A DNA stretch of 47,626 nucleotides from Alistipes sp. (GTDB taxonomy: Bacteria > Bacteroidota > Bacteroidia > Bacteroidales > Rikenellaceae). The position numbers and the translations under genes were made by a program. How positions within the stretch are numbered: position 1 is the first letter of the stretch; each line of letters opens with the position of its first letter. Location: assembly GCA_017379015.1 (NCBI GenBank), contig JAFNXN010000018.1:1-47626 (forward strand), written 5' to 3'. The notes beneath the pieces were generated by a model, which saw only the letters and a list, made by a program, of their open reading frames with translations, ran no database searches and had not been told where the DNA came from. Positions 1 through 39,941 of this stretch are shown in pieces.

Positions 1-171
1 CTTCTTCATAACTGTTTTGTTTTTTAATTGTTTATTATAAGTGTTGTTTGTTTTTTACTTTTTAGTGAATTTAGAGAGTTTAATGAATTTAGTGATTGTC
101 GCAATAGCTAAACTCCCTATATTCCCTAATCTCCTTAAATTCCCTATTTCTTGCGCCCGTTAAAAACAACA

Positions 172-19963: not shown

Positions 19964-22072
19964 ATGAAAAAAATTCTATTTCTTATGACATTTGCATCGC
20001 TTCTTGCGTTGGGTAGCTGCGAAGAGAGCAACCTACCTAAGCCCTTGGTTATCGACAATGCTCTGACCGAGGCTGAGAAGGAGGCTGGTAAGTTCACCCC
20101 CGAGGTGATGTGGAAGATGGGCCGTATCGGCGCGCAGACGCTCTCTGCGGATGGCTCTAAGTTGGTATATGCTCTCACTGAGTACAACATCGCCGAGAAC
20201 CGCGGCGTCACTACACTCTGGTTGCGCGACATGGCTACAGGCGAGACTAAGCGTCTCACCGACTACAACTCTTCAAACCACTCGGCACAGTGGCTCGACG
20301 AGTCGAACATCGCCTTTTTGTCGAACCGTTCAGGCTCGTCACAGGTGTGGGCTATGGACATCAACACCCTTGCTACACGTCAGCTAACTACCCTTGCGAA
20401 GGATGTTGAGGGCTTCGGCATCGCTGGCGACCACGCCTTCTACGTACAGCGCGTTGAGGTGGCTAAGCTCAAGGGCTCTAACAAGTACGAGGATATGGAC
20501 AAGTCTAAGGTGCGCATATATGACGACCTCATGGTACGCCACTGGGACTACTGGGATGATGGCTCATACCTCCACATCTTCGCTGCCGACTACAAGGATG
20601 GCAAGATTGCTGAGGGCAAGGACATTATCGGTGCTGACAAGGCATACGACGCTCCTCTTGCGCCATATTTCGACAATGCCGAGATTCGCCTCTCGCCCGA
20701 CGGCACACAGCTTGCCTACACATGCAAGCCTCTCACCGGCACCGAGTACGCGCTCTCTACCGACTCTGACATCTTCCTCTACGACTTTGCTACTGAGGCT
20801 ACACGCAACCTCTCGAAGGAGGCTGCCGAGGCTGGTGCTGACGCGTTTGTAGGCTACGACAAGTACCCTGTATTCTCGCCCGACGGCACTAAGATCGCCT
20901 TCCGTTCGCAGCGTCGTCCAGGCAACGAGGCTGACCAGCAGCGTCTTTGGGTCTTCGACCTCAAGACCAACAAGTGCGACTACATCACACGTGGTCAGGA
21001 CTACTGCGTGACTGAGGTGGCTTGGGATGGCAACGACGCTATGTACTTCGTGCTTCCATGGCGTGGCACACACCAGGTGGCACACATCGACCTTGCGGGC
21101 AACATGAAGCATATCACACGTGGCAACCACGACATCAACGCCTTCACCTTTGCTGGTGGCAAGATCGTGGCAAACATGAACACCATCTGCAAGGCCGTAG
21201 AGCTCTACGACGTAAACCTCGAGTCGGGCGAGCTCACACAGCTTACCGACGTAAACCGCGAGATCTACGACAACATCAAGTTTGGCGAGGTTCAGGAGCG
21301 TTGGATCACCACCACCGATGGTAAGCAGATGCTCACATGGGTAATCCTACCTCCCGACTTCGATCCTACGAAGAAGTACCCTACACTCCTCTACTGCCAG
21401 GGTGGTCCTCAGAGCACCGTATCGCAGTTCTGGAGCTACCGCTGGAACTTCCAGCTTATGGCTGCCGAGGGCTATGTTATCGTAGCACCTAACCGCCGTG
21501 GCTGCCCATCATTTGGTCAGGAGTGGACCGACCAGATCTCGGGCGACTACTCGGGACAGAACATCCGCGACTACCTTGCTGCTATCGACGAGGTATCTAA
21601 GGAGCCATGGGTGGATACCGACAAGCGTGGTTGCGTAGGTGCGTCGTATGGTGGCTACTCTACATACTACCTTGCGGGCGTTCACGAGGGTCGCTTCAAG
21701 GCCTTCATCGCTCACTGCGGCATCTTCAACTTCGAGTCGATGTATGGCCACACCGAGGAGCTCTTCTTCGTGACCAACGACTATGGTGGCGCATACTGGG
21801 ATAAGGATAACGCCGTGGCACAGCGTTCGTATGCTAACTCGCCACACAAGAACGTTGATAAGTGGGATAGTCCTATTATGATCATCACTGGCGAGAGGGA
21901 CTACCGTATTCCTTATAGCCAGTCGCTCGAGGCGTTCACCGCAGCACGTGTTCAGGGCATCGACGCTCGCCTAGTGTCGTTCGAGAACGAGGCACACCAG
22001 GTGTTCCAGCCACAGAACTCTGTAGTTTGGAATCGCGAGTTCTTTAGCTGGTTGAACAAGTACCTTAAATAA
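19964..22072 (+). CDS. S9 family (prolyl oligopeptidase-type) peptidase lipoprotein
   Basis: 702 residues. Lipoprotein signal MKKILFLMTF with lipobox LGSC (Cys19) and EES after it. Residues ~45-430 are a WD40/PD40-type propeller (repeated LSPDGTQLAY and FSPDGTKIAF blocks). Residues ~450-702 form an alpha/beta-hydrolase with nucleophile Ser in GASYGGYS (~560), Asp in TGERDYRIPYSQS (~645) and His in NEAHQVF (~677). All triad positions are present. It likely trims peptides at the cell surface or in the periplasm, like DPP IV/AOP relatives. It is followed by a terminator and repeat-rich DNA. Confidence 0.95.
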   Translation: MKKILFLMTFASLLALGSCEESNLPKPLVIDNALTEAEKEAGKFTPEVMWKMGRIGAQTLSADGSKLVYALTEYNIAENRGVTTLWLRDMATGETKRLTDYNSSNHSAQWLDESNIAFLSNRSGSSQVWAMDINTLATRQLTTLAKDVEGFGIAGDHAFYVQRVEVAKLKGSNKYEDMDKSKVRIYDDLMVRHWDYWDDGSYLHIFAADYKDGKIAEGKDIIGADKAYDAPLAPYFDNAEIRLSPDGTQLAYTCKPLTGTEYALSTDSDIFLYDFATEATRNLSKEAAEAGADAFVGYDKYPVFSPDGTKIAFRSQRRPGNEADQQRLWVFDLKTNKCDYITRGQDYCVTEVAWDGNDAMYFVLPWRGTHQVAHIDLAGNMKHITRGNHDINAFTFAGGKIVANMNTICKAVELYDVNLESGELTQLTDVNREIYDNIKFGEVQERWITTTDGKQMLTWVILPPDFDPTKKYPTLLYCQGGPQSTVSQFWSYRWNFQLMAAEGYVIVAPNRRGCPSFGQEWTDQISGDYSGQNIRDYLAAIDEVSKEPWVDTDKRGCVGASYGGYSTYYLAGVHEGRFKAFIAHCGIFNFESMYGHTEELFFVTNDYGGAYWDKDNAVAQRSYANSPHKNVDKWDSPIMIITGERDYRIPYSQSLEAFTAARVQGIDARLVSFENEAHQVFQPQNSVVWNREFFSWLNKYLK

Positions 22073-26110: not shown

Positions 26111-26141
26111 TTTGCAGTTTTAGAAAAAAGTTGTATCTTTG
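26111..26141 (+). promoter_or_regulatory. Promoter of the 26198 gene
   Basis: -33 TTTG (26111-26114), 19-nt spacer, -7 TATCTTTG (26134-26141). Leader about 50 nt. Confidence 0.85.
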
Positions 26142-26197
26142 TATTCAAATGGAGTTAGGAAACTAATAAATTTCAAATATCTAAAACTAGTAAAACT

Positions 26198-28714
26198 ATG
26201 AGAATTAAACATTTCCTCTATTTTCTCGTGGCGCTACCTCTACTATTTGTAGCATGCGACGAAAAGGCACCGGTTGACGAGGTGAAGAACCCAACAATCG
26301 AGCTTACAGCGGGTGAGGCAACAGAGTCTACACTATCGTTCACCATCGCCACAACAGAGGCTACCGACGTAGCGTGGTTGGCTGTGGAGGCTACCGAGAC
26401 CACACCAACAGCATCTGAGGTGTTGGCAAATGGTGCAAAGGTTGAGGCTAACAAGAGCGTGAGCTGCACAGCAACAGAGCTCGAGGATGCCACAGAGTAC
26501 ACAATCGTGGCTGTAGTGAAGAACTCTAAGGCTGTAGACAAGAAGGAGATCAAGATGACTACCGAGGCATCAGATCCTGAGGCTACACAGTTCAATCGTA
26601 AGTCGGCTGCCGAGGCTGAGTTCGCAGCAGAGGGCGGCAACGGCGAGATCGAGTACGAGATCGTAAACCCTATCGAGGGCGTTGAGGTGACAGCAGAGGC
26701 TGACGTGGAGTGGATCACAGCAACCGCAGGCGAGAAGATCACCTACACCGTAGCAGCAAACGACGGCGAGGCACGCGAGGGTAAGATCACAGCAGCGTAT
26801 GGCGAGCTATCGTTCGAGGTGACAGTGAAGCAGGCTGCAAAGAAGATCGACGAGCCAGAGGATAACAAGGTGGAGTTCACAGCATCGGTATATGAGGTCT
26901 ACTACTACGGCACTCAGTACTCGACAGCCTACAACTACCAGGTTTACCTCTCGGACAACGGCCTTAACGAGAATGGCAACTACAAGCAGGATGGCATCTA
27001 CTACATGCTCGACATCTACGCTGCCGACAGCGCCGAGAACACCAACTTCACACTCCCTAACGGCAAGTACACAGCATCGGAGTCTTCTAACGCCGGCACA
27101 TTCGGCATCGGCGACTATGGCGCTTGCATAACATTGGTTGACGGCGTGCCTACATACGACATCTACATGCAGGGTACTGTTACCGTTACCGACGGCAAGA
27201 TCGAGGCTAGCATAATGATGGAGGATGGCGAGATCCACCACGTAGTATATGAGGGCGACCTCAAGTTTGGTGGCGACGAGCCTGATGACCCTGAGCAGCC
27301 ATTGGAGGCTACTCACACCGCAGATAAGTGGTTGTGGGGCGGCTCATCGAGCTACGGCAACAAGTATCAGGTGGTTGGCGAGGGCTTCTCACTAGACGTT
27401 CACTTCCCAGCGCAGTATGCCCAGGAGAACGCATTGGCTGAGGGCGACTACATCTGGACATCGACAACATGGTTCGGATACAACGACTTCGAGAACGAGT
27501 TCACAACACGCTCATTCAACGTTAATGGCACATCAGTAGCCGTAGACTCAGGCTCGGCAAAGGTGGCTAAGAGTGGCGAGGAGTATGCTATTCAGCTTGT
27601 ACTCGACGGTCGCGATGGCGTGAAGTATGTGATCGAGTTCAACGGCATTCTCAACGCTAAGGAGGATGTTGGTGGCGACGAGAACATCGTGATGACATCA
27701 CTCTCGGAGGGTGTGTACAACAGCTCATACGGCTTCTACACATTCAAGGCTGCTAACGACAACATCACCTTCGACCTGCTTATCAACGACTATCAGTCGA
27801 AGAGCAATAGCATCGAGGCTAATAGCTACATGTACGCTCCTATGAAGAGCCTTGTAGGCTCTCAAGGCTACTTCTTTGTGGATAACTTCAAGCTCGACGG
27901 CGTGAAGTACAAGCCACAGGTAAACTCTACAATGAGCGTTGTTAACGATGGCGCAAACGTAGGTATCACACTTAACCTCTACATGGACTCGGGCGATCAG
28001 CTTACCGTAGTCTACAACGGTCCTGTCGGCGAGGGCGGTGGCACAACACCTTCAGAGCCTACTAAGCTCGACACACCATCAGTATCGGGCATCGCAGTGG
28101 GCAACGCCGCAACAATCAGCTGGCAGGAGGTTGCAGGTGCTAAGGACTATACCGTGACACTCAATGGCACACTTGTTAGCACTGTTACCGACACCTACAT
28201 CGTATATAGCGACCTCGAGTACAACACAACATACAGCGTATCGGTAGTAGCAAACCCAGCAGACGCCACTGCACACCTCGCCTCTGACGCAGGTACAGCA
28301 TCGTTCACCACCGAGGCAGACCCTAACGAGGGCGGCAACGAAGGTGGCAACGAGGGTGGCAACGAGGGCGGCAACGACGAGTGGGTAGGTCGCGAGGTTA
28401 GACTCCAGCTTCTTGCCTACATGGACAACGTACTCTACACCAACGTAAACAACGAGAGTAAGTACTTTATGACCGCATTCCGCAATGGCATCGTAGCTGG
28501 TAAGTTTGTTATTGCTGGGGAGAACAAGAGCGAGGAGATCATGACCTCTGGTCACGCAACATCGCAGTACGGCTTGTTCGGTGGTACAACTCCATTTGCT
28601 GATGGCGACACCATAGAGGTTGTCGACAATGGCGATGGCACATACACCATCACCTATCGCGTAACCGTAAACGACGAGAAGCTAACAGCAACCTACAGCG
28701 GCGCTTTACAGTAA
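26198..28714 (+). CDS. Array lipoprotein A: FN3-like, BACON and repeated beta domains
   Basis: 838 residues, lipobox FVAC (Cys20) then DEK. Order: FN3-like domain (~33-121), BACON (~137-214, ending EVTVKQAAK), array-type beta domain (~225-357, with YYYGTQYS, LSDNGL, GIYYMLDIY, then HHVVYEGDL), two more divergent beta domains (~365-500 and ~505-630), an FN3 (~640-715), a flexible linker of four NEGG units (~719-735) and a final beta domain (~738-838). Likely surface-exposed and binding. It opens the array and has its own promoter and terminator. Confidence 0.8.
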   Translation: MRIKHFLYFLVALPLLFVACDEKAPVDEVKNPTIELTAGEATESTLSFTIATTEATDVAWLAVEATETTPTASEVLANGAKVEANKSVSCTATELEDATEYTIVAVVKNSKAVDKKEIKMTTEASDPEATQFNRKSAAEAEFAAEGGNGEIEYEIVNPIEGVEVTAEADVEWITATAGEKITYTVAANDGEAREGKITAAYGELSFEVTVKQAAKKIDEPEDNKVEFTASVYEVYYYGTQYSTAYNYQVYLSDNGLNENGNYKQDGIYYMLDIYAADSAENTNFTLPNGKYTASESSNAGTFGIGDYGACITLVDGVPTYDIYMQGTVTVTDGKIEASIMMEDGEIHHVVYEGDLKFGGDEPDDPEQPLEATHTADKWLWGGSSSYGNKYQVVGEGFSLDVHFPAQYAQENALAEGDYIWTSTTWFGYNDFENEFTTRSFNVNGTSVAVDSGSAKVAKSGEEYAIQLVLDGRDGVKYVIEFNGILNAKEDVGGDENIVMTSLSEGVYNSSYGFYTFKAANDNITFDLLINDYQSKSNSIEANSYMYAPMKSLVGSQGYFFVDNFKLDGVKYKPQVNSTMSVVNDGANVGITLNLYMDSGDQLTVVYNGPVGEGGGTTPSEPTKLDTPSVSGIAVGNAATISWQEVAGAKDYTVTLNGTLVSTVTDTYIVYSDLEYNTTYSVSVVANPADATAHLASDAGTASFTTEADPNEGGNEGGNEGGNEGGNDEWVGREVRLQLLAYMDNVLYTNVNNESKYFMTAFRNGIVAGKFVIAGENKSEEIMTSGHATSQYGLFGGTTPFADGDTIEVVDNGDGTYTITYRVTVNDEKLTATYSGALQ
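28325..28376 (+). repeat. 12-bp coding tandem repeat (NEGG linker)
   Basis: Four 12-bp units encode NEGG repeats between domains of lipoprotein A. Units differ at synonymous positions, so the repeat is not brand-new. Confidence 0.85.
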
Positions 28715-28740
28715 AGGCTTAGGCTATACATGTAAAATTT

Positions 28741-28771
28741 TAGGGCTACCCTCGGGTAGCCCTAATATTTT
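28741..28771 (+). terminator. Terminator of the 26198 gene
   Basis: Perfect 10-bp stem (28741-28750 with 28755-28764), CTCG loop, followed by AT-rich ATATTTTAT. AT pairing can extend the stem on both sides. Confidence 0.8.
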
Positions 28772-28807
28772 ATATATAGGTACTTGTTTAGTAATTCTGC
28801 CCGTTTG

Positions 28808-28839
28808 TTTTGAAAATTGCAAAATTTTAATTAATTTCG
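28808..28839 (+). promoter_or_regulatory. Promoter of the 28879 gene
   Basis: -33 TTTTG (28808-28812), 19-nt spacer, -7 TAATTTCG (one mismatch to TAnnTTTG, 28832-28839). Confidence 0.6.
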
Positions 28840-28878
28840 CATAAAGTTATATAATCAACCAATAAATATGTGTGCCCC

Positions 28879-30198
28879 ATGAAAAGATTTGCGATGTTAT
28901 TCGCACTATGCAGCATACTCTTTGCTGCGTGCGACAAAGAGAACGACCCCATCAACACACCCGAGCCTATTGCCGTGGAGAGCGTGGTTGTGACACCCGC
29001 CTCGTGCGAGCTTGCTGTATCCGAAGAGAAGACTTTAAGCGTGGAGATACTCCCCGCCGATGCAGAGTACACGCTCGAGTGGATATCGACAAATAGCGAT
29101 ATTATCGCCGTTGAGGATGGCACGATCAGAGGCGTTGCCCCAGGCACAGCCATCATCATGGCAAAAGCGGGCGACAAGACTGGCAACTGCACGGTGACAG
29201 TGGTTGGCACCCCAGTAGAGTCAATAACCCTAAACTACCACGAGCTAGAGCTTGAGGAGGGCGGCGCATTCACACTATCAGCGACGATAGCCCCCGAAGA
29301 TGCCGACAACAAGTCGATACTATGGAGCTCCTCAGCACCCGACATCGTCAAGGTAAACGGCGCGGGCAACCTCACCGCCATACGCCCAGGACTCGCTGTA
29401 ATCACCGCCAAGGCGGGCAACTGCACCGACGAGTGCGCCGTGAGAGTCAATGCTGCACCTCTGAGCGTCGGCGACTTCTACTACTCGGACGGCTCATGGT
29501 CGCAGTCGCTCGACCCTACACGCACACCTATCGGCGTAGTATTCCACGTTGGCGACATCACAGCCTCTGACCCAGCACTTAAGGCGGAGCACCCATACTG
29601 CACACACGGCCTCGTGGTGGCTCTCGACGAGCAGACTGAGATGGGCTGGCAGACAAACTACCTCGAGTATAACGACACGGTAGGTCGCTGGGTAGAGCTT
29701 AACACCAACTACGAGACAATAACCACAGGCTTCGAGCTTGAGGACAACTATAACCGCGCCATAGGCTACAACAACACCAAGGCAATCGAGGCATTCAACG
29801 CCGCCGAGGAGAATGCTGCATGGCCCGTGGAGGCTGTTCAGTATGTCGTAGACTACCGCACCAAGGTGCCAGCACCCGAGACAAGTAGCGACTGGTACTT
29901 AGGCTCTTCAAAGGAGCTATCGTTGCTCGTATCAGGACCTTACGACCAGAATATCTGGGATATTCGCGATCAAGGCATCACCATCGAGAACAAGAAGCTA
30001 ATCAACAAAAAGCTTGAGCAGATTGAGGGCGCATGGCAGATTGGCGTTCAGATCCCTGTAATGATGTTCTACTGGACTAGTACCGAGACAACTTGGGAGA
30101 TGGCGGGCCTTATGATGCCGATGAATGGTCAGATGCCTCACGGCTTCAAAGGCGACAACGTTGCATTCTACACCGCACGTGCTATCTTGGCATTCTAA
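28879..30198 (+). CDS. Big_2-type Ig-domain lipoprotein
   Basis: 439 residues from the ATG at 28879; a GTG three codons upstream is unlikely. Lipobox FAAC, Cys18. Two bacterial Ig-like (Big_2) domains lie at ~32-112 and ~113-198, each with the typical VTPAS/ILPADAEYTLEW and GVAPGTAIIMAKAG pattern. The C-terminal ~240 residues begin VGDFYYSDGSWS and include WYLGSSKEL and FYWTSTET, as in major-paralogous-domain-like surface proteins of the phylum. It carries neither a BACON domain nor the array domain, so it interrupts the array as an unrelated lipoprotein. Own promoter and terminator. Confidence 0.82.
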   Translation: MKRFAMLFALCSILFAACDKENDPINTPEPIAVESVVVTPASCELAVSEEKTLSVEILPADAEYTLEWISTNSDIIAVEDGTIRGVAPGTAIIMAKAGDKTGNCTVTVVGTPVESITLNYHELELEEGGAFTLSATIAPEDADNKSILWSSSAPDIVKVNGAGNLTAIRPGLAVITAKAGNCTDECAVRVNAAPLSVGDFYYSDGSWSQSLDPTRTPIGVVFHVGDITASDPALKAEHPYCTHGLVVALDEQTEMGWQTNYLEYNDTVGRWVELNTNYETITTGFELEDNYNRAIGYNNTKAIEAFNAAEENAAWPVEAVQYVVDYRTKVPAPETSSDWYLGSSKELSLLVSGPYDQNIWDIRDQGITIENKKLINKKLEQIEGAWQIGVQIPVMMFYWTSTETTWEMAGLMMPMNGQMPHGFKGDNVAFYTARAILAF

Positions 30199-30218
30199 AA
30201 CCTACACAACTAATAATA

Positions 30219-30250
30219 AACGGAGGTACATCACGTATCTCCGTTTTTTT
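30219..30250 (+). terminator. Terminator of the 28879 gene
   Basis: Seven-base arms AACGGAG and CTCCGTT around a 13-nt loop, followed by a T-run of about seven. Confidence 0.85.
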
Positions 30251-30267
30251 AATTTTGAAACTAACTA

Positions 30268-30299
30268 TTTGGAAAGAAATACCATTTTTTATAATTTTG
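30268..30299 (+). promoter_or_regulatory. Promoter of the 30339 gene
   Basis: -33 TTTG (30268-30271), 20-nt spacer, -7 TAATTTTG (30292-30299). Confidence 0.85.
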
Positions 30300-30338
30300 C
30301 AGAAATGAAATATATTAATTAAATTAATAATCAAACTT

Positions 30339-31205
30339 ATGAAAAGAGTATTTTACCTACTACTTGCACTTCCACTGCTCGTTGCTGCGTGCGAGCCTGA
30401 TAAGAGTGATCCTCAGCCACAGCCCAAGCCCGAGCCCGAGAAGGAGTATGCTGCTGAACTAACACTCACATCGGAGGCAGAGATGAATTTCGATGCCGAG
30501 GGTGGCGAGGGTGTTATCACCTATACTGCAGAGATGGTTGAAGTTACCCGTACCGAGCCAGCAGTTGTTGAGGCTAACTGTGCGGCTACATGGGTTACAG
30601 ACCTTACTGTTGCCGAGGATATTACCTTCACCGTAGCTACCAACGAGGCAGAGGCTCGCGAGACTAAGATCGTGGTTACATACTGGGACAAAAAGTTCGA
30701 GGTTGCTGTTAAGCAGGCGGCTAAGTTAGAGGAGCCAGAGCCACCAAGGACTATTCACTTTGAAGCGAAGCATCTTGACGGCATCTACTATGGCGATATG
30801 TACTCGCCAGGCGTTGCCAACTACTACGTATGGTTCTCGGATCTCGGCCTAGGTCAGGACTACGCACCCTACGCTGGTGGCACTTACTACCGTCTTGACC
30901 TATACACCGACGAGTTCCACGCTGGCTTTGATAGGCCTACAATCCCTGCTGGCACATACACACTCGACCTTGCCGACACCACAACAGCTGGAACGCTAGG
31001 CTACATCCACTCACTCTACTTCGCATACGACGAGGCAGGTAATATGACCACTGGCTACGAGGGTTATCGCTTCTCGGCTGCTGAGCTGCTTGTTGACGAG
31101 ACTGGACTTATGACGCTCACAGCGACTATCGAGGGTCATACACACATCGTTACATTCCAAGGCACGTCAAACATCGACGACATCAACAACTATGGCGACG
31201 AGTAG
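30339..31205 (+). CDS. Array lipoprotein B: BACON plus one repeated domain
   Basis: 288 residues, the minimal version of the array architecture. Lipobox VAAC (Cys18), a Pro/Lys/Glu linker, a BACON-type domain (~40-128, ending EVAVKQAAK) and one array domain (~139-280, with YYGDMYSPGVANYY, FSDLGL, GTYYRLDLY, then HIVTFQG). Its BACON segment (30438-30726) is nearly identical in DNA to that of the next gene (31555-31843). Acidic residues after Cys suggest surface export. Function unknown. Own promoter and terminator. Confidence 0.8.
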   Translation: MKRVFYLLLALPLLVAACEPDKSDPQPQPKPEPEKEYAAELTLTSEAEMNFDAEGGEGVITYTAEMVEVTRTEPAVVEANCAATWVTDLTVAEDITFTVATNEAEARETKIVVTYWDKKFEVAVKQAAKLEEPEPPRTIHFEAKHLDGIYYGDMYSPGVANYYVWFSDLGLGQDYAPYAGGTYYRLDLYTDEFHAGFDRPTIPAGTYTLDLADTTTAGTLGYIHSLYFAYDEAGNMTTGYEGYRFSAAELLVDETGLMTLTATIEGHTHIVTFQGTSNIDDINNYGDE

Positions 31206-31275
31206 CCCCCGAGAGGTGTATAGTTAACCACGACCTACGCTTTGGCGGAATAGAAAGGCTAGTTTAAACCTACAC

Positions 31276-31311
31276 AGCGTCATCTTGAAATGATAGATGA
31301 CGCTCTTTTTA
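31276..31311 (+). terminator. Terminator of the 30339 gene
   Basis: Perfect 10-bp stem (31276-31285 with 31295-31304) and a 9-nt loop, then CTTTTTATT. The stem core GCGTCAT/ATGACGC recurs in the next gene's terminator at 33391-33427. Confidence 0.85.
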
Positions 31312-31344
31312 TTAATGACACAACTCAAAAAAAGCATACAACTC

Positions 31345-31375
31345 TTGCAAATTAAACTAAAATTGATTAATTTTG
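31345..31375 (+). promoter_or_regulatory. Promoter of the 31445 gene
   Basis: -33 TTG (31345-31347), 20-nt spacer, -7 TAATTTTG (31368-31375). Confidence 0.85.
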
Positions 31376-31444
31376 TCTATGATCGAGCAACACTAGAAAA
31401 TAGATATACTAGAAATTATTCAACAACTAAAACTAAATAATACT

Positions 31445-33370
31445 ATGAAAATCAAACATTTATTCTATCTATTGCTTGCATTGCCATTGGCATTTGCTGC
31501 TTGTGAGGAGCTCTCTCCAGAGCCAAAACCAGAACCAGGTCCAGGTCCAGAGCCCGAGAAGGAGTATGCTGCTGAGCTAACACTCACATCGGAGGCAGAG
31601 ATGAATTTCGATGCCGAGGGTGGCGAGGGTGTTATCACCTATACTGCAGAGATGGTTGAAGTTACCCGCACCGAGCCAGCAGTTGTTGAGGCTAGTTGCG
31701 CGGCTACATGGGTTACAGACCTTACTGTTGCCGAGGATATTACCTTCATCGTAAGAGCCAACGAGGCAGAGGCTCGCGAGACTAAGATCGTGGTAACATA
31801 CTGGGGAGAAAAGTTCGAGGTTGCTGTTAAGCAGGCGGCTAAGACAGAGGAGCCTGAGAGTGGCGTTAAGTTCGCAGCTACATGCCTCGATGGTGACTAC
31901 TACGGCGACGAATACTCACCAGGTGTAGGCAACTACTACATATTCCTTTCAGACCTTGGCTTAAGCGAGGATGGTGAGCCTTATATCGGTGGCACATACT
32001 ACTCTGTAGACCTCTACGGTCCATTGTTCGAGGGCGAGGGCGACATCACACTCCCTGTCGGCACCTACACATTCGATGCAGAGGATACTTGTGCAATGTG
32101 GACCATTGGTAACTACTACTCAGGTTACGCTAAAATTAATAGTAGCGAGGACTACGAGACATATACATTCACCGATGCAACACTTGTTGTTACCGAGACT
32201 GACGTAACACTCACAGCCACAATTAATGGCGAGGTACACACCGTAACCTTCGAGGGCAAGGGCAATATTGCCGACTTCTCATCAACTAATACAGAGGTCG
32301 AGTTTGAGCCTAACTACGCCTTTGGCTACTACTTTGGCGACATGTACACCCCTGGTGTGGCTGACAACTTCTACTTCTTCATCTCTGACCTCGGTATGGA
32401 CGAGGAGGGTTACGCACTGCCAAATGGTCAGTACTTCCGCTTCGACCTCTACACCGAGATCGTTGATACCACCAACGGCATCGAATTGCCCGATGGCACA
32501 TACGAGTTCGACGTGAACAACACTTATGCCCCTGGCACATTCACCGACGAGTACTCTATGTATTATAGCATGGATGAGTACGGTTATGATTATGCTGCTA
32601 CCGCACTATTCTCTGAGGGTACATTAGTCAAGGAGGGCAACAAGATCAGTGTAGAGGTTATCATCGATGGCACAACCATTACTTTTGAGTTCGAGGGCAT
32701 AATCGACATCTACGACTCTCGCACCCCAGAGGAGGATCCAGAAGACCCAGAGGATCCTGAGAACCCAACACCTGGCGAGAGCTACTCGACACTCACTGGC
32801 GACTTGGAGCTCAACATTACCAACGCATTCTACGCCTTGGAGTACTACGGTGACTACTACAGCGCAGATACCGACAACTGGGTACTCTACCTCTACGAGG
32901 ACATTGAGACTCTGGATGGCGCGTTCATTATGCTCGACTTCACCAACGACCCATACGCTGACAATATCGCTGGCACATATACTGTAGATGATGGCGACTG
33001 GACCTACGAGCAGTACACTTACTTCCCAGGATATGTTGATGGCGATGATATGTGGGGTTCATGGTACACCGAGATGGTTGCTGGCGTAGATCTCACTGCT
33101 ATAGCACCTCTCACCAATGGCGAGATTAAGATTGAGTGCGCAGGTGACATCTACACCATCACATTCGACTGCGTAGACGATGCTGGTCACAAGATTACTG
33201 GTAGTGTTGTAGCTAATCCTATCGACTACTCAGCAATGGCACTCTCTGCTACAAACGTTTCTAAGAAGCCAGCTAAGAAGAGCTCAAACAAGGCTGTTTC
33301 GATGCAGAAGAGCAAGGTTGAGCCTATGAGCAAGAGCACAACCGAGAAGAGAATCTTGACTGCTCGATAA
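31445..33370 (+). CDS. Array lipoprotein C: BACON plus three repeated domains
   Basis: 641 residues. Lipobox FAAC (Cys20), then EE and a Pro/Glu linker. BACON-type domain ~43-135, array domains at ~146-280 (YYGDEYSPGVGNYY), ~284-425 (YFGDMYTPGVADNFY) and ~443-600 (YYGDYYSADTDNWVLYLYED, a divergent subtype shared with genes E and F). The last ~40 residues are Lys/Ser-rich and basic, unlike the acidic rest. Domain number differs between neighbours, as expected for expansion by internal duplication. Own promoter and terminator. Confidence 0.8.
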   Translation: MKIKHLFYLLLALPLAFAACEELSPEPKPEPGPGPEPEKEYAAELTLTSEAEMNFDAEGGEGVITYTAEMVEVTRTEPAVVEASCAATWVTDLTVAEDITFIVRANEAEARETKIVVTYWGEKFEVAVKQAAKTEEPESGVKFAATCLDGDYYGDEYSPGVGNYYIFLSDLGLSEDGEPYIGGTYYSVDLYGPLFEGEGDITLPVGTYTFDAEDTCAMWTIGNYYSGYAKINSSEDYETYTFTDATLVVTETDVTLTATINGEVHTVTFEGKGNIADFSSTNTEVEFEPNYAFGYYFGDMYTPGVADNFYFFISDLGMDEEGYALPNGQYFRFDLYTEIVDTTNGIELPDGTYEFDVNNTYAPGTFTDEYSMYYSMDEYGYDYAATALFSEGTLVKEGNKISVEVIIDGTTITFEFEGIIDIYDSRTPEEDPEDPEDPENPTPGESYSTLTGDLELNITNAFYALEYYGDYYSADTDNWVLYLYEDIETLDGAFIMLDFTNDPYADNIAGTYTVDDGDWTYEQYTYFPGYVDGDDMWGSWYTEMVAGVDLTAIAPLTNGEIKIECAGDIYTITFDCVDDAGHKITGSVVANPIDYSAMALSATNVSKKPAKKSSNKAVSMQKSKVEPMSKSTTEKRILTAR

Positions 33371-33390
33371 ACCATTTCGACTAATACTCA

Positions 33391-33427
33391 AAAAAGCGTC
33401 ATTCCGAAAGGATGACGCTTTTTTTGA
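33391..33427 (+). terminator. Terminator of the 31445 gene
   Basis: A-run, GCGTCAT/ATGACGC stem extended by CC/GG around a GAAA loop (one bulged T), then a run of seven T. The A-run makes it potentially bidirectional. The T-run also supplies the -33 TTTG of the next promoter. Confidence 0.88.
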
Positions 33428-33453
33428 TGTTTTCATTTTTTTTCATATCTTTG
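33423..33453 (+). promoter_or_regulatory. Promoter of the 33506 gene
   Basis: -33 TTTG (33423-33426), 19-nt spacer, -7 TATCTTTG (33446-33453). It overlaps the preceding terminator. Confidence 0.85.
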
Positions 33454-33505
33454 TGTTAGTGCTGTCCCCCTACACTGAGAATTTTATACTACTAACTACA
33501 CGACT

Positions 33506-34543
33506 ATGAAAGTTAAACACCTTATCTTTATGGTGTTGGCACTGTCGCTAACACTCTCAGCATGCGAGCCTCAAGCTCTCGAGGAGGACAACAACACAGA
33601 AAATCCTCAGCCTGACCCAGACCCAGATCCTCAGCCAGACCCAGATCCAGATCCTCAGCCAGACCCAGATACTGTATATTTTGAGGCGCACCACTCTAGC
33701 GGAGCATACTATGGCGACCAATACTCACCAGGCGTCGACAACTACTTTATCTCGCTATCGGACAATGGCTTCGATGCCAATGGCTATGCGCAGCCTAACA
33801 CAACATACTACCGTCTAGACCTCTATGCACCAAAGCACGCGGGCGAGTGGCAGGAGCTGATGCCACTACCCCTTGGCGAGTATCGATATGATGCCGAGAA
33901 TAGCTTTGAGGAGTGGACATTTGCTGCCGACTACTCAGGATATGTGACAACTAACGACACAGATGTATCTGCCCAAATAGAGTTTGAATCGGGCAAGCTT
34001 GTTGTTGAGGAGAATAGAACAACACTCACCGTAGTTATTGAAGGCAAGACCCATATTGTGACATTCACCGGCGAGCACATCATCGCCAACGTAAATCCTA
34101 AGCCTATAGGCGACAATGAGCTAAAGGTGGAGCACGCCTATGCACTATATTATGGTGACAAGTTTACGCCCGACACTGCCGATAACTTCTACCTATATTT
34201 AAGTGATAAGGGTCTTGATGAGTATGGCTTCGAGTGTGCCGGCGGCACATACTACACCTTTGACCTCTACACCACCCTATCCGACGATATGACACTACCC
34301 GAGGGCACATACCATTGGGATGCCAACGAGACCCTTGCCCCAGGCACAATAAATAGATACTACACCAAGTATTACGTGTGGAACGAGGAGGGCACAGGCT
34401 ACTCTGATAGTGCCTACCCCACTAACGCCACACTTTCCATCAGCAAAGAGGGCATCACTGCCGAGGTGTGGTTCGACGAGGCTAAGCACACGGTAACATT
34501 CGAGGGCAGTGCTACCATCTACGAAATACAAGAGGAGGAATAA
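33506..34543 (+). CDS. Array lipoprotein D: two repeated domains, no BACON
   Basis: 345 residues. Lipobox LSAC (Cys20), then an acidic stretch (EPQALEEDNN) and a Pro-Asp-Gln linker of repeated PDPDPQ units (~34-56). Array domains at ~57-195 (YYGDQYSPGVDNYF, SDNGF, TTYYRLDLY, HIVTFTGEH) and ~203-343 (YYGDKFTPDTADNFY, SDKGLDEYGF, GTYYTFDLY, HTVTFEG). The BACON domain present in its neighbours is missing, and the rigid repeat linker takes its place as a spacer. No terminator is visible before the next gene. Confidence 0.8.
   Translation: MKVKHLIFMVLALSLTLSACEPQALEEDNNTENPQPDPDPDPQPDPDPDPQPDPDTVYFEAHHSSGAYYGDQYSPGVDNYFISLSDNGFDANGYAQPNTTYYRLDLYAPKHAGEWQELMPLPLGEYRYDAENSFEEWTFAADYSGYVTTNDTDVSAQIEFESGKLVVEENRTTLTVVIEGKTHIVTFTGEHIIANVNPKPIGDNELKVEHAYALYYGDKFTPDTADNFYLYLSDKGLDEYGFECAGGTYYTFDLYTTLSDDMTLPEGTYHWDANETLAPGTINRYYTKYYVWNEEGTGYSDSAYPTNATLSISKEGITAEVWFDEAKHTVTFEGSATIYEIQEEE
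33605..33670 (+). repeat. Coding tandem repeat (PDPDPQ linker)
   Basis: Near-identical units encoding PDPDPQ spacers downstream of the lipobox. Length change would preserve the frame in multiples of three, giving spacer-length variation. Confidence 0.8.
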
Positions 34544-34565
34544 CAAGAATAAAAAGACTAAAATA

Positions 34566-34597
34566 TTTGCATCTTCAAATAAATTTACTTAATTTTG
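34566..34597 (+). promoter_or_regulatory. Promoter of the 34664 gene
   Basis: -33 TTTG (34566-34569), 20-nt spacer, -7 TAATTTTG (34590-34597). Confidence 0.85.
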
Positions 34598-34663
34598 TTC
34601 AAGTATTGATAGATTTACAGACTACATAGATAACATAATTCAATAACTAAAACAGATAAGACT

Positions 34664-36775
34664 ATGAGAATTAAACATTTACTCTATCTATTGCTTGCAT
34701 TGCCATTGGCATTTGCAGCTTGTAACGAGACCGAGGATCTTACCCCTGCGCCTGAGAAGGAGGCACAGTTGACTCTTACGTCTGCGGCTGAGATGAATTT
34801 CGATGCTGCGGGTGGCGAGGGTGTTATCACCTACACTGCGGAGCTTGTTGATGTAACACGTCAGGCTGATGGCGATGTACCAAAGGTTAGCGTCGCATGT
34901 GAGGCTAACTGGGTTGAGCTTGGCAATCCCGACTTTGAGAGTGTTTCATTCACCGTTGCAGCTAACGAGGCTGAGGCTCGCGAGACTAAGATTGTTGTTA
35001 ACTACGCAGTTAAGAGCATCGAGGTAGTTGTTAAGCAGGCGGCTAAGCAGGAGACTGGCAAGGAGTATGTTATGGATGCAGAGCTAGCTTCAGCTACACG
35101 CATTGCAAGTGACGAGTTGGATCTTCCAAACGACCACTTCGCTATCGTATTTGTAGACAATGACGAGAATCTATCTGTAGGTGTTGTACTTAAGGGATCA
35201 GAGGGCGACACACTTCTCCAGGCTGGCGACTATACAAGCGAGGCTGAGAACTTGATCGGTGGCTCAATATTTGTATATGAGACTGAGGATGAGTATGAAT
35301 TCACTCAGGGTAGTGTAAAGGTAGAGCTCGAGGGCACAACCTACACATTCGACATCGAGCTAGTTTACGAGGATGGTGGTCTATACCACTTCACCTACGA
35401 GGGCGAGGTAGCGGACATGGAACTTCCTCAGACTCCTGAGGCTGAAGAGTTTGTACCTGTAAAGGTTGAGGCATACCGCGAAACAACGTGGGATCTTGGC
35501 AACTTCGAGCTCGACCTCTATATAGATGCTAAAACATGCCACTACCTCGATATGCAGGATAATGTAAATCCTAACGATAAGTACCTCACTGCAGGTCACT
35601 ACTCAATGAAGGATGGTAGCATCACCAACTGGTCGAACTTTGTTCACAATATCGAGACTGGCGAGGGTGCCTATGTCGTTGATGCCGAGATCGACCTTAC
35701 ACACAACGAGGATGGTACAACTAACATCAAGGGTTACATAGAGTCAGAGTATGGTCAGCGCATCGAGCTTGACTGGACAGGTGTTGTTGAGGGCTTCGAC
35801 TTCTCAACTGAGGAGCCTACTCCAGGGCCAAGTGATGTAGTGTTTAATGCTACATACTTTGGTGGTAGCTACTACAACGTTGGCGTACACAACTACTATT
35901 TTGCACTCTCTGATGTTGAGATTACTGGTTCAGAGGCTGTTGATGGCGCAACATACTACTACTTCGACATCTACTCTACGGAGATTAACAGCGACATGAC
36001 TATACCTAACGGCGTTTACACATTTGATGTTTCAAACAGCTACTCAGCAGGCACATTCACTGAGGAGTATGGCTTTGGCTTCCATGTTAATGGCGACGAG
36101 CGTATTTGGTATCTCTATGCTGAGGGTAGCAAGCTAACTGTATCGGACAACAAGATCGTTGCAGAGCTTGTTATGTTGGATGGCACAAAGCATGTTGTAA
36201 CATACGAGGGTAGCCTATCACTAGGTAGCACAAACAATGATGAGGAACTCTCAATTGGTCTTAGCAGCGATATGGAGATCGACGTTACAGGTTGGACAGT
36301 AATCCCAGAGTACTACGATCAGTACTACTCTAACGACACTGACAACTGGTATGTACACTTATACGAGGATATTGAGACTGGCAACGGTGGCTACATTATG
36401 CTTGACCTATTGGCAGACTACGCTACATCAGTAGACTATCGCGGAACATTCACATGTTCTGAGGATCCTGCTATCAACACATTCTTGAGTGGTCGCATCG
36501 AAGACGATTACTTGACAGGTAGCTGGTACACAGAGCTAACTGATGGAGATATAAGTGGACTAATGGTTCCATTTACAGATGGTACTATCACCGTAACATT
36601 CAATGATGACGGCACACAGACTTTCAAATTCGACTGTACGGAAATCAATGGTTACAAGTTCACCGGTAATGTAACTTGCGAGGTATATGCTGGCGGATAC
36701 TCAGCTATGAGCAAGGTTGCTACAGGCAATCACAAGAGCCTAACAATCGATTTTGGCAAGAAAGTAGTTCGCTAA
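34664..36775 (+). CDS. Array lipoprotein E: BACON plus four beta domains
   Basis: 703 residues, the member with most domains. Signal almost identical to gene C (lipobox FAAC, Cys20). BACON-type domain (~36-127, ending VVVKQAAK). Two divergent beta domains (~134-255 and ~266-385) are followed by a typical array domain (~390-525, with SYYNVGVHNYYFALSD and HVVTYEG) and a last domain of the YYDQYYSNDTDNWYVHLYED subtype (~535-690) that matches the C-terminal domain of gene C. A short basic tail ends FGKKVVR. Own promoter and terminator. Confidence 0.8.
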   Translation: MRIKHLLYLLLALPLAFAACNETEDLTPAPEKEAQLTLTSAAEMNFDAAGGEGVITYTAELVDVTRQADGDVPKVSVACEANWVELGNPDFESVSFTVAANEAEARETKIVVNYAVKSIEVVVKQAAKQETGKEYVMDAELASATRIASDELDLPNDHFAIVFVDNDENLSVGVVLKGSEGDTLLQAGDYTSEAENLIGGSIFVYETEDEYEFTQGSVKVELEGTTYTFDIELVYEDGGLYHFTYEGEVADMELPQTPEAEEFVPVKVEAYRETTWDLGNFELDLYIDAKTCHYLDMQDNVNPNDKYLTAGHYSMKDGSITNWSNFVHNIETGEGAYVVDAEIDLTHNEDGTTNIKGYIESEYGQRIELDWTGVVEGFDFSTEEPTPGPSDVVFNATYFGGSYYNVGVHNYYFALSDVEITGSEAVDGATYYYFDIYSTEINSDMTIPNGVYTFDVSNSYSAGTFTEEYGFGFHVNGDERIWYLYAEGSKLTVSDNKIVAELVMLDGTKHVVTYEGSLSLGSTNNDEELSIGLSSDMEIDVTGWTVIPEYYDQYYSNDTDNWYVHLYEDIETGNGGYIMLDLLADYATSVDYRGTFTCSEDPAINTFLSGRIEDDYLTGSWYTELTDGDISGLMVPFTDGTITVTFNDDGTQTFKFDCTEINGYKFTGNVTCEVYAGGYSAMSKVATGNHKSLTIDFGKKVVR

Positions 36776-36801
36776 ACATTGAACCTCAATAGGGTTTTCA
36801 T

Positions 36802-36832
36802 ATAGGGTCACCTTCGGGTGACTCTATTTTTT
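36802..36832 (+). terminator. Terminator of the 34664 gene
   Basis: 11-bp stem with one G-U (36802-36812 with 36817-36827) and a stable TTCG tetraloop, then TTTTTA. Confidence 0.88.
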
Positions 36833-36833
36833 A

Positions 36834-36863
36834 TTGCACATTGCAAAAAAATCACTATATTTG
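36834..36863 (+). promoter_or_regulatory. Promoter of the 36903-38175 pair
   Basis: -33 TTG (36834-36836), 19-nt spacer, -7 TATATTTG (36856-36863). 29 of 34 bases (36831-36864) match the promoter at 44625-44658. Confidence 0.88.
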
Positions 36864-36902
36864 CCCGAGATTAGGATAATATTTTAAAAAAGATAAAATT
36901 TC

Positions 36903-38129
36903 ATGAAGAAGATTTTTTCATTTATGCTACTCGCATCACTACTTGTGGTAGCATGCGACAAGGGCGGTGACGAAAACGTTAAGCCAACGCTTAAGATCAC
37001 CTCTGAGAGCACTATCGAGCTTGGCATTGAGGGCGGCACAGCCGAGATCACCTACACCGTGGCAAATGGTGCTTCGACAACTGTAAATATCTATGAGACA
37101 ACATCGTGGCTTGACACAACAGTAGAGCCATCGAAGGTAATTGTTACCGTAGATGCAAACGATGGCATGTCGCCACGTGAGGCTAAGATCACCGTTAAGT
37201 ACTACGATGCATCAGAGGAGATTATCGTTAAGCAGGCTGGCAAGAGCAGTGGCGACTACGATGTAGAGTTCGTCGGCAAGCGTTTCGAGGGTATCTACTA
37301 CGAGCCAACTGGTTCGAGCATGGCAAACTACTACGTTATCATCTCGGACCGTGGCGTAGCTATGGATGGTACACCAAAGGCTGGTGGCACCTACTACTTC
37401 TTCGACATGTACTCAGCAACAGCTGCTGAGGATGGCTACCCACTACTTCCAGAGGGCAACTACTCATACGACACAACAAATAGCTACGCGGACCTAACCT
37501 TCAGCGAGGAGTTGAGCTGGTATGCTGTGATGGGTGCCAACGGTGAGTACAGCAAGACAGATGAGTTCACAAGTGCCTCAGTAAGCGTTACGAAGAATCG
37601 CTTTGAGGCTGTAATCGAGCTTGCCTCAGGCGAGAAGCACCACGTAGTTTACGAGGGTGAGTTGCTCACTGCTGTAGGATATATCTACTCTACATTTACC
37701 GAGGATGTCGAGTTTGCAGTTGAGGATGCTACAATCAGCGCAAACCTCTACGGCGACATCCTTGAGATTGGTCAGCAGAACTGGTATATCGAGGCTGTCA
37801 AGGGCAGCGACCTCTTCATGATCGAGGTGTTCACCCCAAGCACCACCTCTTTCGACGGCATTTATCAGATGCTGGATCCCGAGGCTCAGGACTATACTAA
37901 CCGCTTTATCCCTGGCATGATTGGCGAAGACGGCCTTGTCGGCACATGGTATGCAAAGGTTACAGATGGCTCTATCAAGGGTGATGTCATGGCACCAATG
38001 GGTGATGGAATCATTCGACTTACAACATCGGGCAATACTCTCACCATCGAGTATGGTTGCAAGGATGATGCTGGCAACAACATCACTGGAAAAGTATCTG
38101 GCGCACTAACCATTAATGATATGCGCTAA
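36903..38129 (+). CDS. Array lipoprotein F: BACON plus two repeated domains
   Basis: 408 residues. Lipobox VVAC (Cys18), then DKGGDEN. BACON-type domain ~27-113 (ending EIIVKQAGK), array domain ~120-255 (IYYEPTGSSMANYYVIISDRGV, here split: IYYEPTGSS then MANYYVIISD; GTYYFFDMY; HHVVYEGEL) and a divergent final domain ~258-405 (QQNWYIEAV, LVGTWYAKV, then ITGKVSGAL). No terminator separates it from the next gene, 45 bp away, so the two are likely co-transcribed. Confidence 0.8.
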   Translation: MKKIFSFMLLASLLVVACDKGGDENVKPTLKITSESTIELGIEGGTAEITYTVANGASTTVNIYETTSWLDTTVEPSKVIVTVDANDGMSPREAKITVKYYDASEEIIVKQAGKSSGDYDVEFVGKRFEGIYYEPTGSSMANYYVIISDRGVAMDGTPKAGGTYYFFDMYSATAAEDGYPLLPEGNYSYDTTNSYADLTFSEELSWYAVMGANGEYSKTDEFTSASVSVTKNRFEAVIELASGEKHHVVYEGELLTAVGYIYSTFTEDVEFAVEDATISANLYGDILEIGQQNWYIEAVKGSDLFMIEVFTPSTTSFDGIYQMLDPEAQDYTNRFIPGMIGEDGLVGTWYAKVTDGSIKGDVMAPMGDGIIRLTTSGNTLTIEYGCKDDAGNNITGKVSGALTINDMR

Positions 38130-38174
38130 TAGCGATAAAGACAAAACATTAAACCAACTAATTAATAACCAGTT

Positions 38175-39920
38175 ATGAAAAAGCTTTTCTATCTATTGCT
38201 TGCATTGCCATTGGCATTTGTAGCATGTGATGATCCTGATCAGGGCGTTGATGAGCCACAGGTACAGGATCCAGTATTAAAGGTCGTTGAGACTACTATC
38301 GACTTCGCAGCTAAGGGCGGCAACGGTGATATTCACTACGTTGTTGAGAACGCTGTTGAGGGCACTAATGTTAAGGCTACTTGCGAGGCTCAGTGGGTTA
38401 GCGATATCAACGTAGCCGAGAAGATCACCTTCACCGTAGCAGCTAACGAGGAGACCGAGGCACGTGAGACTACTATCGTTGTAGCTTATGGCGAGCTCTC
38501 AAAGAGCGTTACTATCAACCAGGAGGCTAAGGCTGAGGCACCAGCAGTACCTAAGCTTGAGGCTGTAGAGTCTACAGTTGAGTACGCATGGGATGTTACC
38601 TCTGGTGAGGTTGCATTTACTTTGGAGAACCCTATCGCTGGCGTAGAGGTTACTGCTAAGACATCTACAAGCTGGATCTCACAGGTTCAGGTTAAGGATG
38701 GCAAGATTTTGTTTGCCATGGAGAAGAACATGGGCGAGGCTCGTGAGGGTAAGATCACTGCTGAGTACGGTATGTTGGAGCCTATCCAGTTCACTGTAAA
38801 GCAGAGTGCATACGTTGCTCCAGATCCAGTTCTTACTGTTGACAACAACACTTTCGAGTTCGATGCTGAGGGTGGTAACGGTTCATTCACATACACCGTA
38901 GAGAACCCTGTTGCAGGCGTAGTACTTGAGGCTGAGGCTGATGTTGAGTGGATCACTGAGGTTACTGTAGCTGATGGCAACGCTTCATTCGCAGTTGCAA
39001 AGAACGAGGGTGACTTGCGCGAGGGCAAGATTATCTTGACATACGGCAATATCAGCGCAGAAGTTGTTGTTAAGCAGCTTCCATCAGGCTACGATCCTAA
39101 CATGAACTACAGCATCTTCGGCGTCATCGAGACATGGGCAGATCTAAAGCAGGAGGGTAAGCAGTGGAACGTGACATTCGTTGAGCACCACGATATCCTT
39201 GGCGATATGCAGACTACGATCAGCTTCTACAACGAAGAGGCTAACATCCAGCACCTTAACTCTGGTAGCTACTCAGTAGCAAACGGTGGTATCCTTGTTA
39301 ATAGCTTCTCACAGAATGGCTTCTCGATTTACCGTGGTAACAGCTCTGACGCTGCCGACATCGCAGACGCAAACTTCGAGGTAACGGCTGATACTGACGC
39401 TCACATAATTACTATCGAGGGTTCTTTCAAGGTAGGCAACAATATTATCACGTTGAACTACACTGGTGAAATCAGAGGTATGGATATTAGCAAGCCTACT
39501 AACGAGGCTATCAACATTACTGACTGGAAGACTTTCACTGGTAAGTATTGGAATGGCTACGATGATGATAGCGAGTTTATGTTCCAGGGTCGCTCAACTG
39601 ATGGCTCAGTAGAGATCATGTTTGACTGCTACGCATTCCCACGCGTTACCGACAAGATTGCACCTGAGGGTACATACACTATCGCTCCATGGGAGGCAAA
39701 GGATAACTACCTGGGCGACACTCTATATGTAATGGATCAGTCACACATTACATATAATACTATTAAGGGTAACCTTTCTGAGGGTACATTGACCATTGAG
39801 CATATCGAAGGCGGTTACACCATTACGTTCGACTTTATCGACACTCTTGGTCGTCACTTCACTGGCTCATATAGCGGTGCGTTGACTGCTGGCTCAACTG
39901 TAATAAACCCAACCATGTAA
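38175..39920 (+). CDS. Array lipoprotein G: three BACON domains plus beta domains
   Basis: 581 residues. Lipobox FVAC (Cys18), then DDPDQ. Three BACON-type domains follow one another (~34-113, ~120-212 and ~217-308), each with the VEWI/AQWV-like Trp, AREGKI/ARETTI strand and a VKQ or INQ end. Two beta domains (~318-440 and ~445-575, ending RHFTGSYSGALTAG) make up the rest. No promoter is seen in the 45-bp gap upstream, so it depends on the promoter at 36834. Signal-peptide DNA 38189-38220 is identical to that of genes C and E. Confidence 0.8.
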   Translation: MKKLFYLLLALPLAFVACDDPDQGVDEPQVQDPVLKVVETTIDFAAKGGNGDIHYVVENAVEGTNVKATCEAQWVSDINVAEKITFTVAANEETEARETTIVVAYGELSKSVTINQEAKAEAPAVPKLEAVESTVEYAWDVTSGEVAFTLENPIAGVEVTAKTSTSWISQVQVKDGKILFAMEKNMGEAREGKITAEYGMLEPIQFTVKQSAYVAPDPVLTVDNNTFEFDAEGGNGSFTYTVENPVAGVVLEAEADVEWITEVTVADGNASFAVAKNEGDLREGKIILTYGNISAEVVVKQLPSGYDPNMNYSIFGVIETWADLKQEGKQWNVTFVEHHDILGDMQTTISFYNEEANIQHLNSGSYSVANGGILVNSFSQNGFSIYRGNSSDAADIADANFEVTADTDAHIITIEGSFKVGNNIITLNYTGEIRGMDISKPTNEAINITDWKTFTGKYWNGYDDDSEFMFQGRSTDGSVEIMFDCYAFPRVTDKIAPEGTYTIAPWEAKDNYLGDTLYVMDQSHITYNTIKGNLSEGTLTIEHIEGGYTITFDFIDTLGRHFTGSYSGALTAGSTVINPTM

Positions 39921-39941
39921 CGAACATAATTCGTTAAAAAC

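What the first reader, a model, noticed from the sequence alone, without database searches (positions are those of the whole stretch)
26198..39920. Array of paralogous BACON lipoproteins carrying an unassigned repeated beta domain
Seven lipoproteins (26198, 30339, 31445, 33506, 34664, 36903, 38175) and, at a distance, the 44936 gene share a beta-rich domain of about 130 residues. Its markers are YYGDxYSPGxxNYY, then SDxGL, GxYYxxDLY, an ALPxGxYxxD stretch, and a final strand H(I/V)VT(F/Y)EG. The copy number per protein ranges from one to four, mostly next to a BACON-type domain. I cannot match it to a named Pfam family. An array of surface lipoproteins differing in domain number looks like a diversifying binding system (glycan, mucin or partner bacterium), which is inference.
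Basis: partly seen in the sequence, partly recalled or inferred. Interest (0 to 1): 0.8.

Follow-up and report, generated by a model that had tools for sequence, protein, structure and literature searches.

The report
Surface lipoprotein array with uncatalogued domain
A gut bacterium carries a row of lipoproteins built from a shared stem and one to four copies of a protein domain that the family databases searched do not list; the domain has relatives in other genera and probably helps the cell capture something at its surface, but what it binds is unknown.

Summary
The array is real. Profile comparison puts Y, a C-terminal domain (C) and most other repeats of these genes, including those of 38175 and one of 44936, in one superfamily, so "one to four copies" holds at that level. 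No Pfam-A, NCBIfam or PDB match was convincing. Y has 16 matches (E 1e-5) in this incomplete genome and occurs in 43 of 101 sampled genomes of the genus, but in 4 of 295 of the order (own genome included). Remote relatives are scattered lipoproteins of Bacteroidota, a few in SusC/SusD operons or beside subtilases. The array sits in an old slot near an S9 peptidase. Its genes diverge faster than neighbours but keep orthologues. BACON stems, not Y or C tips, show recent exchange between paralogues (300 nt, 94%; similar pairs in 3 of 15 genomes). Six of seven window genes have their own promoter-like site; no invertible switch was found. Best reading: surface ligand-capture lipoproteins with recombining stems and stable, diverged tips. 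Glycan binding is possible, not favoured by context.

The parts
26198..28714 (+). lipoprotein gene, 838 aa: BACON-like region, Y domain (26864-27256), two X-type repeats (27311-27655, 27665-28033), weak fn3 segment, C-terminal repeat of unclear kinship
30339..31205 (+). lipoprotein gene, 288 aa: BACON stem (about 30444-30740) and one Y domain (30747-31163)
31445..33370 (+). lipoprotein gene, 641 aa: BACON stem, Y (31859-32257), Y (32291-32698), C domain (32780-33235)
33506..34543 (+). lipoprotein gene, 345 aa: no BACON match, Y (33668-34072) and Y (34109-34507)
34664..36775 (+). lipoprotein gene, 703 aa: BACON-like stem, two X-type repeats (35057-35419, 35447-35818), Y (35831-36211), C (36251-36700)
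36903..38129 (+). lipoprotein gene, 408 aa: BACON stem, Y (37257-37658), C (37683-38123)
38175..39920 (+). lipoprotein gene, 581 aa: three BACON domains and two superfamily repeats (39126-39494, weaker; 39495-39917) without the Y motif
30429..30728 (+). BACON block 94% identical to 31547-31846 in the neighbouring gene, with diverged flanks: recent stem exchange or copying
31547..31846 (+). partner of the BACON block 30429-30728
44936..47440 (+). distant gene with a lipoprotein-like start, 834 aa; only the middle repeat (about 46403-46771) is supported as a remote superfamily member
28870..30198 (+). Big_2 lipoprotein inside the array, not a superfamily member; 85-87% identical in the three congener loci where it was seen
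19964..22072 (+). S9 peptidase; its orthologue lies next to, or within about 3 kb of, the 26198-type gene in six congener loci

Best explanation
The array encodes lipoproteins built as lipid anchor, BACON stem, then one to four copies of one uncatalogued ~110-150-residue domain superfamily (Y, C and X types, beta-rich by eye) as tips. Shown by sequence: lipoprotein-type starts, the shared superfamily, the old genomic slot, separate promoter-like sites, faster divergence than neighbours with orthologues retained, and recent exchange of BACON stems but not of Y or C tips between paralogues. Inferred: the proteins stand on the cell surface; each tip captures a different ligand (peptide or protein fragment, cofactor or glycan) for TonB-dependent uptake or in concert with secreted peptidases; the stems are interchangeable spacers, which is why recombination can homogenise them without changing specificity.
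For: Superfamily: hhalign Y-C 98.1%, Y-S 98.2%, C-S 98.6%, X with Y, C and S 92-98% over nearly the whole domain (S = eight single-domain relatives of other families, A5), against at most 1.4% for BACON, Big_2 and reversed profiles. With strong Y and C copies masked before recruiting, Y matches the two 34664 repeats and 38175-c2 at 96-97% and two 26198 repeats at 92-93%; C matches the 34664 repeats and 38175-c2 at 96-97%. Lipoproteins: 75 of 78 Y/C genes fit my lipobox pattern (starts were chosen to favour one). Own promoters: 51 of 75 genes with TTTG-17..23-TANNTTTG within 160 nt upstream, shuffled mean 1.8, max 4 (consensus in PMC7366714, passage); in the window 6 of 7. Stem exchange: nearest neighbour in the same genome for 21 of 105 BACON copies (200 label shuffles: mean 7.4, max 18), 7 of 106 Y (mean 6.7), 0 of 50 C (mean 3.1); five gene pairs in three genomes at 0.89-0.96 nt identity in BACON, none at 0.85 or more in Y or C; identity falls sharply at the end of BACON in all three genomes. 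Context: remote relatives in SusC/SusD operons (G282, G390, G306), beside S8 subtilases (G282, G221), and in the own genome a BACON-Y-Y gene about 120 nt behind a row of DUF4465, PKD, DUF5074 and TonB-plug genes.
Against: No ligand, structure or expression data. Masked C profile against the 26198 repeats gives only 12-13%, 38175-c1 only 60% to Y and 41% to C, and the last repeat of 26198 at most 9%, so not every repeat is tied to both Y and C. Acidic residues after the lipid cysteine (mean 1.85 D/E in +2..+6) do not set the Y/C genes apart from 41 other lipobox ORFs of the same loci (1.56), so surface exposure is not discriminated. The genome has three SusD matches, none on this contig. Of 20 wider relative loci, 15 gave no BLAST hit to any of eleven reference SusC, SusD, peptidase or B12-locus proteins; five had a SusC hit, not always adjacent, and one of these a SusD hit. 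The B12-type link is one genome only: the closest congener relatives of that gene are array genes. The exchange signal rests on 3 of 15 genomes, and on the signal-peptide side the boundary is clear only in the window pair.
Confidence: 0.5

Rival explanations
1. Glycan- or mucin-binding adhesins: the tips are lectin-like and attach the cell to host mucin or plant polysaccharide.
For: BACON is named for carbohydrate association and mucin was predicted as a substrate (PMC11216935, passages); remote relatives occur in SusC/SusD operons; one Y copy of 31 has a weak AlcCBM31 hit, E 0.038.
Against: Only 38% of BACON domains lie in PULs (PMC11216935); no SusD near this array; in one SusC/SusD operon the partners are a metallopeptidase, DUF4302 and a subtilase, which suggests protein rather than glycan use.
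Confidence: 0.25
2. Coat or decoy proteins under pressure from phages, antibacterial toxins or host antibodies: the tips vary to escape recognition and have no specific ligand.
For: Orthologues of 26198, 33506, 34664, 36903 and 38175 are 38-75% identical in the best local alignment, against 81-93% for the S9 peptidase and the four genes 40057 to 41691; paralogue number varies and in three genomes the array lies in two places.
Against: Orthologues with the same architecture persist across species; tips are not shuffled; no invertible element found.
Confidence: 0.15
3. Structural spacers only: the whole protein including Y and C domains is a passive stalk or envelope lattice.
For: Repeated domains in tandem; DUF1735 and BACON are proposed membrane-bound spacers (PMC11216935).
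Against: Y keeps six residues (N29, S35, Y51, Y57, Y76, G139) in 31 of 31 aligned copies, though these may be structural; tips differ in kind between genes while stems are interchangeable.
Confidence: 0.1

Closest known systems
BACON-domain lipoproteins (PF13004)
   Same: Lipoprotein anchor and N-terminal BACON stem followed by variable C-terminal domains, in Bacteroidota (PMC11216935, passages).
   Different: The C-terminal domains are a superfamily without a convincing Pfam-A or NCBIfam match, repeated within and between genes of one array.
SusE/SusF-type surface glycan-binding proteins (compared from recall)
   Same: Lipoproteins with several beta domains; a few remote relatives stand in SusC/SusD operons.
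   Different: No SusD near the array; no PDB chain matches the Y, C, X or S profile below E 0.013.
DUF4465/BtuH B12-binding lipoproteins (PF14717)
   Same: Accessory lipoproteins of TonB loci; one Y-Y gene of this genome follows a locus with DUF4465.
   Different: No profile relation: hhalign at most 0.1% for Y, C, X and S (one of the ten DUF4465 rows, L147, was read in a wrong frame).
Lipocalin_4 (PF13648)
   Same: Best hit E 0.079; 3 of 31 Y copies show one.
   Different: 14.3 bits against a cut-off of 22.4, and only over residues 75-140 of 146.

Membership tests
BACON-domain protein (PF13004) | Match at or over Pfam's curated cut-off (25 bits) | tested here: met
   31445 (25.0), 36903 (32.4), 38175 (67.5, three stretches); not met in 30339 (24.8); no match reported for 26198, 33506, 34664
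Any Pfam-A or NCBIfam family, for the Y, C and X domains | Match over a curated cut-off | tested here: not met
   Best Pfam E-values: 0.0085 among 31 Y, 0.019 among 15 C, 0.003 among 16 X sequences (bits and cut-offs are printed only for the first member of each set). Nine window proteins against NCBIfam: none over its cut-off
Lipocalin_4 (PF13648) | Match over the curated cut-off | tested here: not met
   14.3 bits against 22.4
DUF4465 (PF14717) | Profile similarity over the domain | tested here: not met
   hhalign at most 0.1%, with one wrong-frame row among ten and no positive control; no DUF4465 hit in the Pfam scans; PDB 9fct_B, a DUF4465 chain, aligns to the S profile at E 0.16 from the signal peptide onward
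SusE/SusF-type glycan-binding proteins | Encoded beside SusC and SusD | tested here: not met
   SusD matches of this genome lie on C6 (two) and C28 (one), the array on C32; met for remote relatives in G282 and G390, and in G306 with SusD judged by eye
SusE/SusF-type glycan-binding proteins | Binds glycans | not testable with these tools
   No binding data
Phase-variable surface system | Invertible segment at promoters | tested here: not met
   No inverted repeats of 30 nt or more in 25800-40056; in eight gaps scanned, close hairpins and palindromes of 11-33 nt and two wider-spaced pairs of 13-14 nt at 85-86%
Surface-exposed lipoprotein with export signal | Acidic residues after the lipid cysteine | tested here: inconclusive
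   51 of 75 have two or more D/E in +2..+6, but so do 25 of 41 control ORFs

The most novel reading that the evidence does not exclude
An undescribed Bacteroidota surface-domain superfamily, outside this family often a solitary ~180-260-residue lipoprotein, has been built in some Rikenellaceae into a modular tip array whose BACON stems are homogenised by recombination while the tips specialise: an interchangeable-stem, fixed-tip capture system serving several uptake routes, possibly including cobamides.
Probability: 0.35. Interest if true: 0.7.

Novelty: new variant of a known kind. Interest (0 to 1): 0.5.

Why it matters
It offers a profile for a domain that recurs in many lipoproteins of one Rikenellaceae genus with ruminant-colon members, and links them to scattered orphan lipoproteins of other Bacteroidota families. 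Exchanged stems with stable tips are the reverse of what a shuffled-tip antigen system would show, and can be tested by strain comparison and by single-domain binding assays.

Tried and rejected
PDB sequence searches: none with Y at E up to 10; best with C 4uid_A, E 0.013 over 30 residues, with X 0.58, with S 0.094. One remote relative (L101) matches a GH16 chain, 8va4_A, E 2e-6, over its residues 20-128, its BACON part. DUF4465 kinship: not supported. Mobile origin: no match of the 31445 protein in plasmids or phages and none of the 33506 protein in viral contigs. PHROGs: eight proteins, best E 0.013. Phase variation: no sign. Decayed C domain behind 30339: none recognisable by eye in six frames. 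Conserved B12 link of the Y-Y gene: not found in congeners. Export-signal enrichment: not discriminating. Literature: searches for BACON with lipoprotein and Alistipes, mucin and Bacteroidetes, Rikenellaceae, lipoproteins, tandem and domain of unknown function, glycan-binding protein and gene conversion, and Rikenellaceae listed no title or abstract start describing such an array; listings are capped and only the cited papers were opened, as outline or passages.

Rows dropped or limits: only copies covering at least 75% of the model and above 15 (BACON) or 60 bits (Y, C) were compared, from 15 genomes chosen because they hold array loci (14 with G handles and the contig L042). Profiles A2-A5 lean towards their own members. 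The 44936-r2 profile was recruited without masking and may hold array repeats. LRR, DUF6562 and 44936-N controls are single sequences. Reverse-profile controls were made for Y, C and S, not X. SusC in G282 was named by eye and served as BLAST reference.
Full report
What is there. A profile of eight hand-cut copies finds the Y domain in six genes: one copy each in 26198, 30339, 34664 and 36903, two each in 31445 and 33506. 38175 and 44936 lack it. In the whole, 78%-complete genome it finds 17 matches at E up to 0.1, 16 of them below 1e-7, on six contigs. So the domain is not a chance pattern.

One superfamily, several types. 26198, 31445, 34664, 36903 and 38175 hold further repeats. A C-terminal domain (C) recurs in 31445, 34664 and 36903, with a weak match (16 bits) in 38175; in the congener loci read, architectures such as BACON-Y-C, BACON-Y-Y-C, Y-Y, Y-C and BACON-BACON-Y-C recur. 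Profile comparison puts Y and C together (98%), and X-type repeats (26198, 34664, 38175) with both at 92-95%, while BACON, Big_2 and reversed profiles stay at or below 1.4%. With strong Y and C copies masked before recruiting, Y still matches six of the seven X-type repeat profiles: 92-97% for five, 60% for 38175-c1, and 0.5% for the last repeat of 26198. The masked C profile matches three at 96-97% but 38175-c1 at 41% and the 26198 repeats at 9-13%. Of the 44936 repeats, the second reaches 93-99%, the first 2-56% and the third at most 12%.

Beyond the genus. All tallies include the own genome. With the first Y profile, 43 of 101 genomes of the genus and 4 of 295 of the order match at E 1e-5; with a 31-row profile 53 of 200 of the family, 4 of 22 genera. 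The C and X profiles reach 17 and 19 of 295 genomes of the order, several through solitary ~180-260-aa lipoproteins. A profile of eight of those (S) matches 15 of 296 genomes of the phylum, some of them only over the signal peptide. Ten wider relatives gave no Pfam match over its cut-off outside their BACON parts. Named relatives are five MAGs labelled Alistipes sp. or Rikenellaceae bacterium, three of them from roe deer or yak colon.

Genome context. In six congener loci the S9 peptidase lies next to the 26198-type gene (four) or about 3 kb from it (two), and in G022 the other side (40057 to valine-tRNA ligase) is also the same, so the slot is old. In G073, G059 and G091 array genes lie in two places. 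Best local alignments with the window: S9 peptidase 83-93% (6 loci), the four genes 40057 to 41691 81-92% (G022), the Big_2 gene 85-87% (3 loci), 33506 orthologues 62-74%, 34664 orthologues 38-60%, 26198 orthologues 38-75%.

Stem exchange. Genes 30339 and 31445 share a 300-nt block at 94% identity that coincides with BACON; third-position identity falls from about 0.9 inside to 0.4-0.6 outside. A sharp fall at the end of BACON is also seen in G059 (0.99 to 0.37) and, over a longer stretch, in G071 (0.86, 0.66, 0.42); there the signal-peptide part is itself 0.84 alike, so the left boundary is clear only in the window pair. Over 15 genomes, BACON copies have their nearest neighbour in another gene of the same genome in 21 of 105 cases, more than any of 200 label shuffles (max 18); Y in 7 of 106 and C in 0 of 50, no more than shuffles give on average. 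The effect is modest and driven by few genomes. It may be gene conversion or recent domain copying; the data do not separate them.

Expression and location. 51 of 75 Y/C genes have a promoter-like site within 160 nt, against a mean of 1.8 in mononucleotide shuffles. In the window 6 of 7 genes have one with a perfect -7 element; 38175, 45 nt behind 36903, has none. 75 of 78 genes fit my lipobox pattern, but the acidic stretch after the cysteine is hardly more marked than in other lipobox ORFs (export signal described in PMC5080379 and PMC6222051, passages).

Function. Nothing here shows a ligand. In G282 a wider relative stands in a run SusC, SusD, Peptidase_Mx1, DUF4302, relative, Peptidase_S8; in G221 another stands before Peptidase_S8. 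In G390 and G306 (one genus) a relative precedes SusC and a SusD or SusD-like gene. Fifteen of the 20 wider loci showed no such neighbour. In the own genome a BACON-Y-Y gene follows DUF4465, PKD, DUF5074 and TonB-plug genes with about 120 nt between; DUF4465 proteins bind B12 in B. thetaiotaomicron (PMC13398666, abstract start in the listing) and such loci hold accessory proteins of unknown function (PMC8941943, abstract). I read this as capture at the outer membrane for uptake, with the ligand class open.

Verdict. A known kind of object, a paralogous surface-type lipoprotein array, made of an uncatalogued domain superfamily and with an unusual pattern of exchanged stems and stable tips.

Noticed in passing
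L059 (G000:C12:28000-40000), 3-7640: DUF4465, PKD, DUF5074 and TonB-plug genes followed by a BACON-Y-Y lipoprotein on the same strand: looks like a B12-type locus with a Y-domain accessory gene.
   Followed up: partly
L121 (G213:C3:10000-29900): In another genus of the family, two kinds of ~490-540-aa BACON proteins largely alternate in a tandem array; one kind ends in a C-type domain.
   Followed up: no
L116 (G282:C17:8000-26000), 195-12023: SusC, SusD, Peptidase_Mx1, DUF4302, multi-repeat superfamily protein and Peptidase_S8 in one row: possible protein-utilisation locus.
   Followed up: partly
L148-L164 and L167: A BACON-BACON-Y-C frame of 498-537 aa recurs in 18 of 20 regions fetched because they held Y matches; in 14 of the 18 a 620-645-aa single-BACON frame is its neighbour.
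   Followed up: no
window 22792-25752: DUF6562 lipoprotein-like gene between the S9 peptidase and the array; no counterpart at E 1e-10 in the congener loci compared.
   Followed up: no
window 17296-19257, minus strand: BspA-type leucine-rich-repeat gene with a BACON domain close to the array.
   Followed up: no
window 28870-30198: Big_2 lipoprotein inside the array, much better conserved than its neighbours; the start may be GTG 28870 or ATG 28879.
   Followed up: partly
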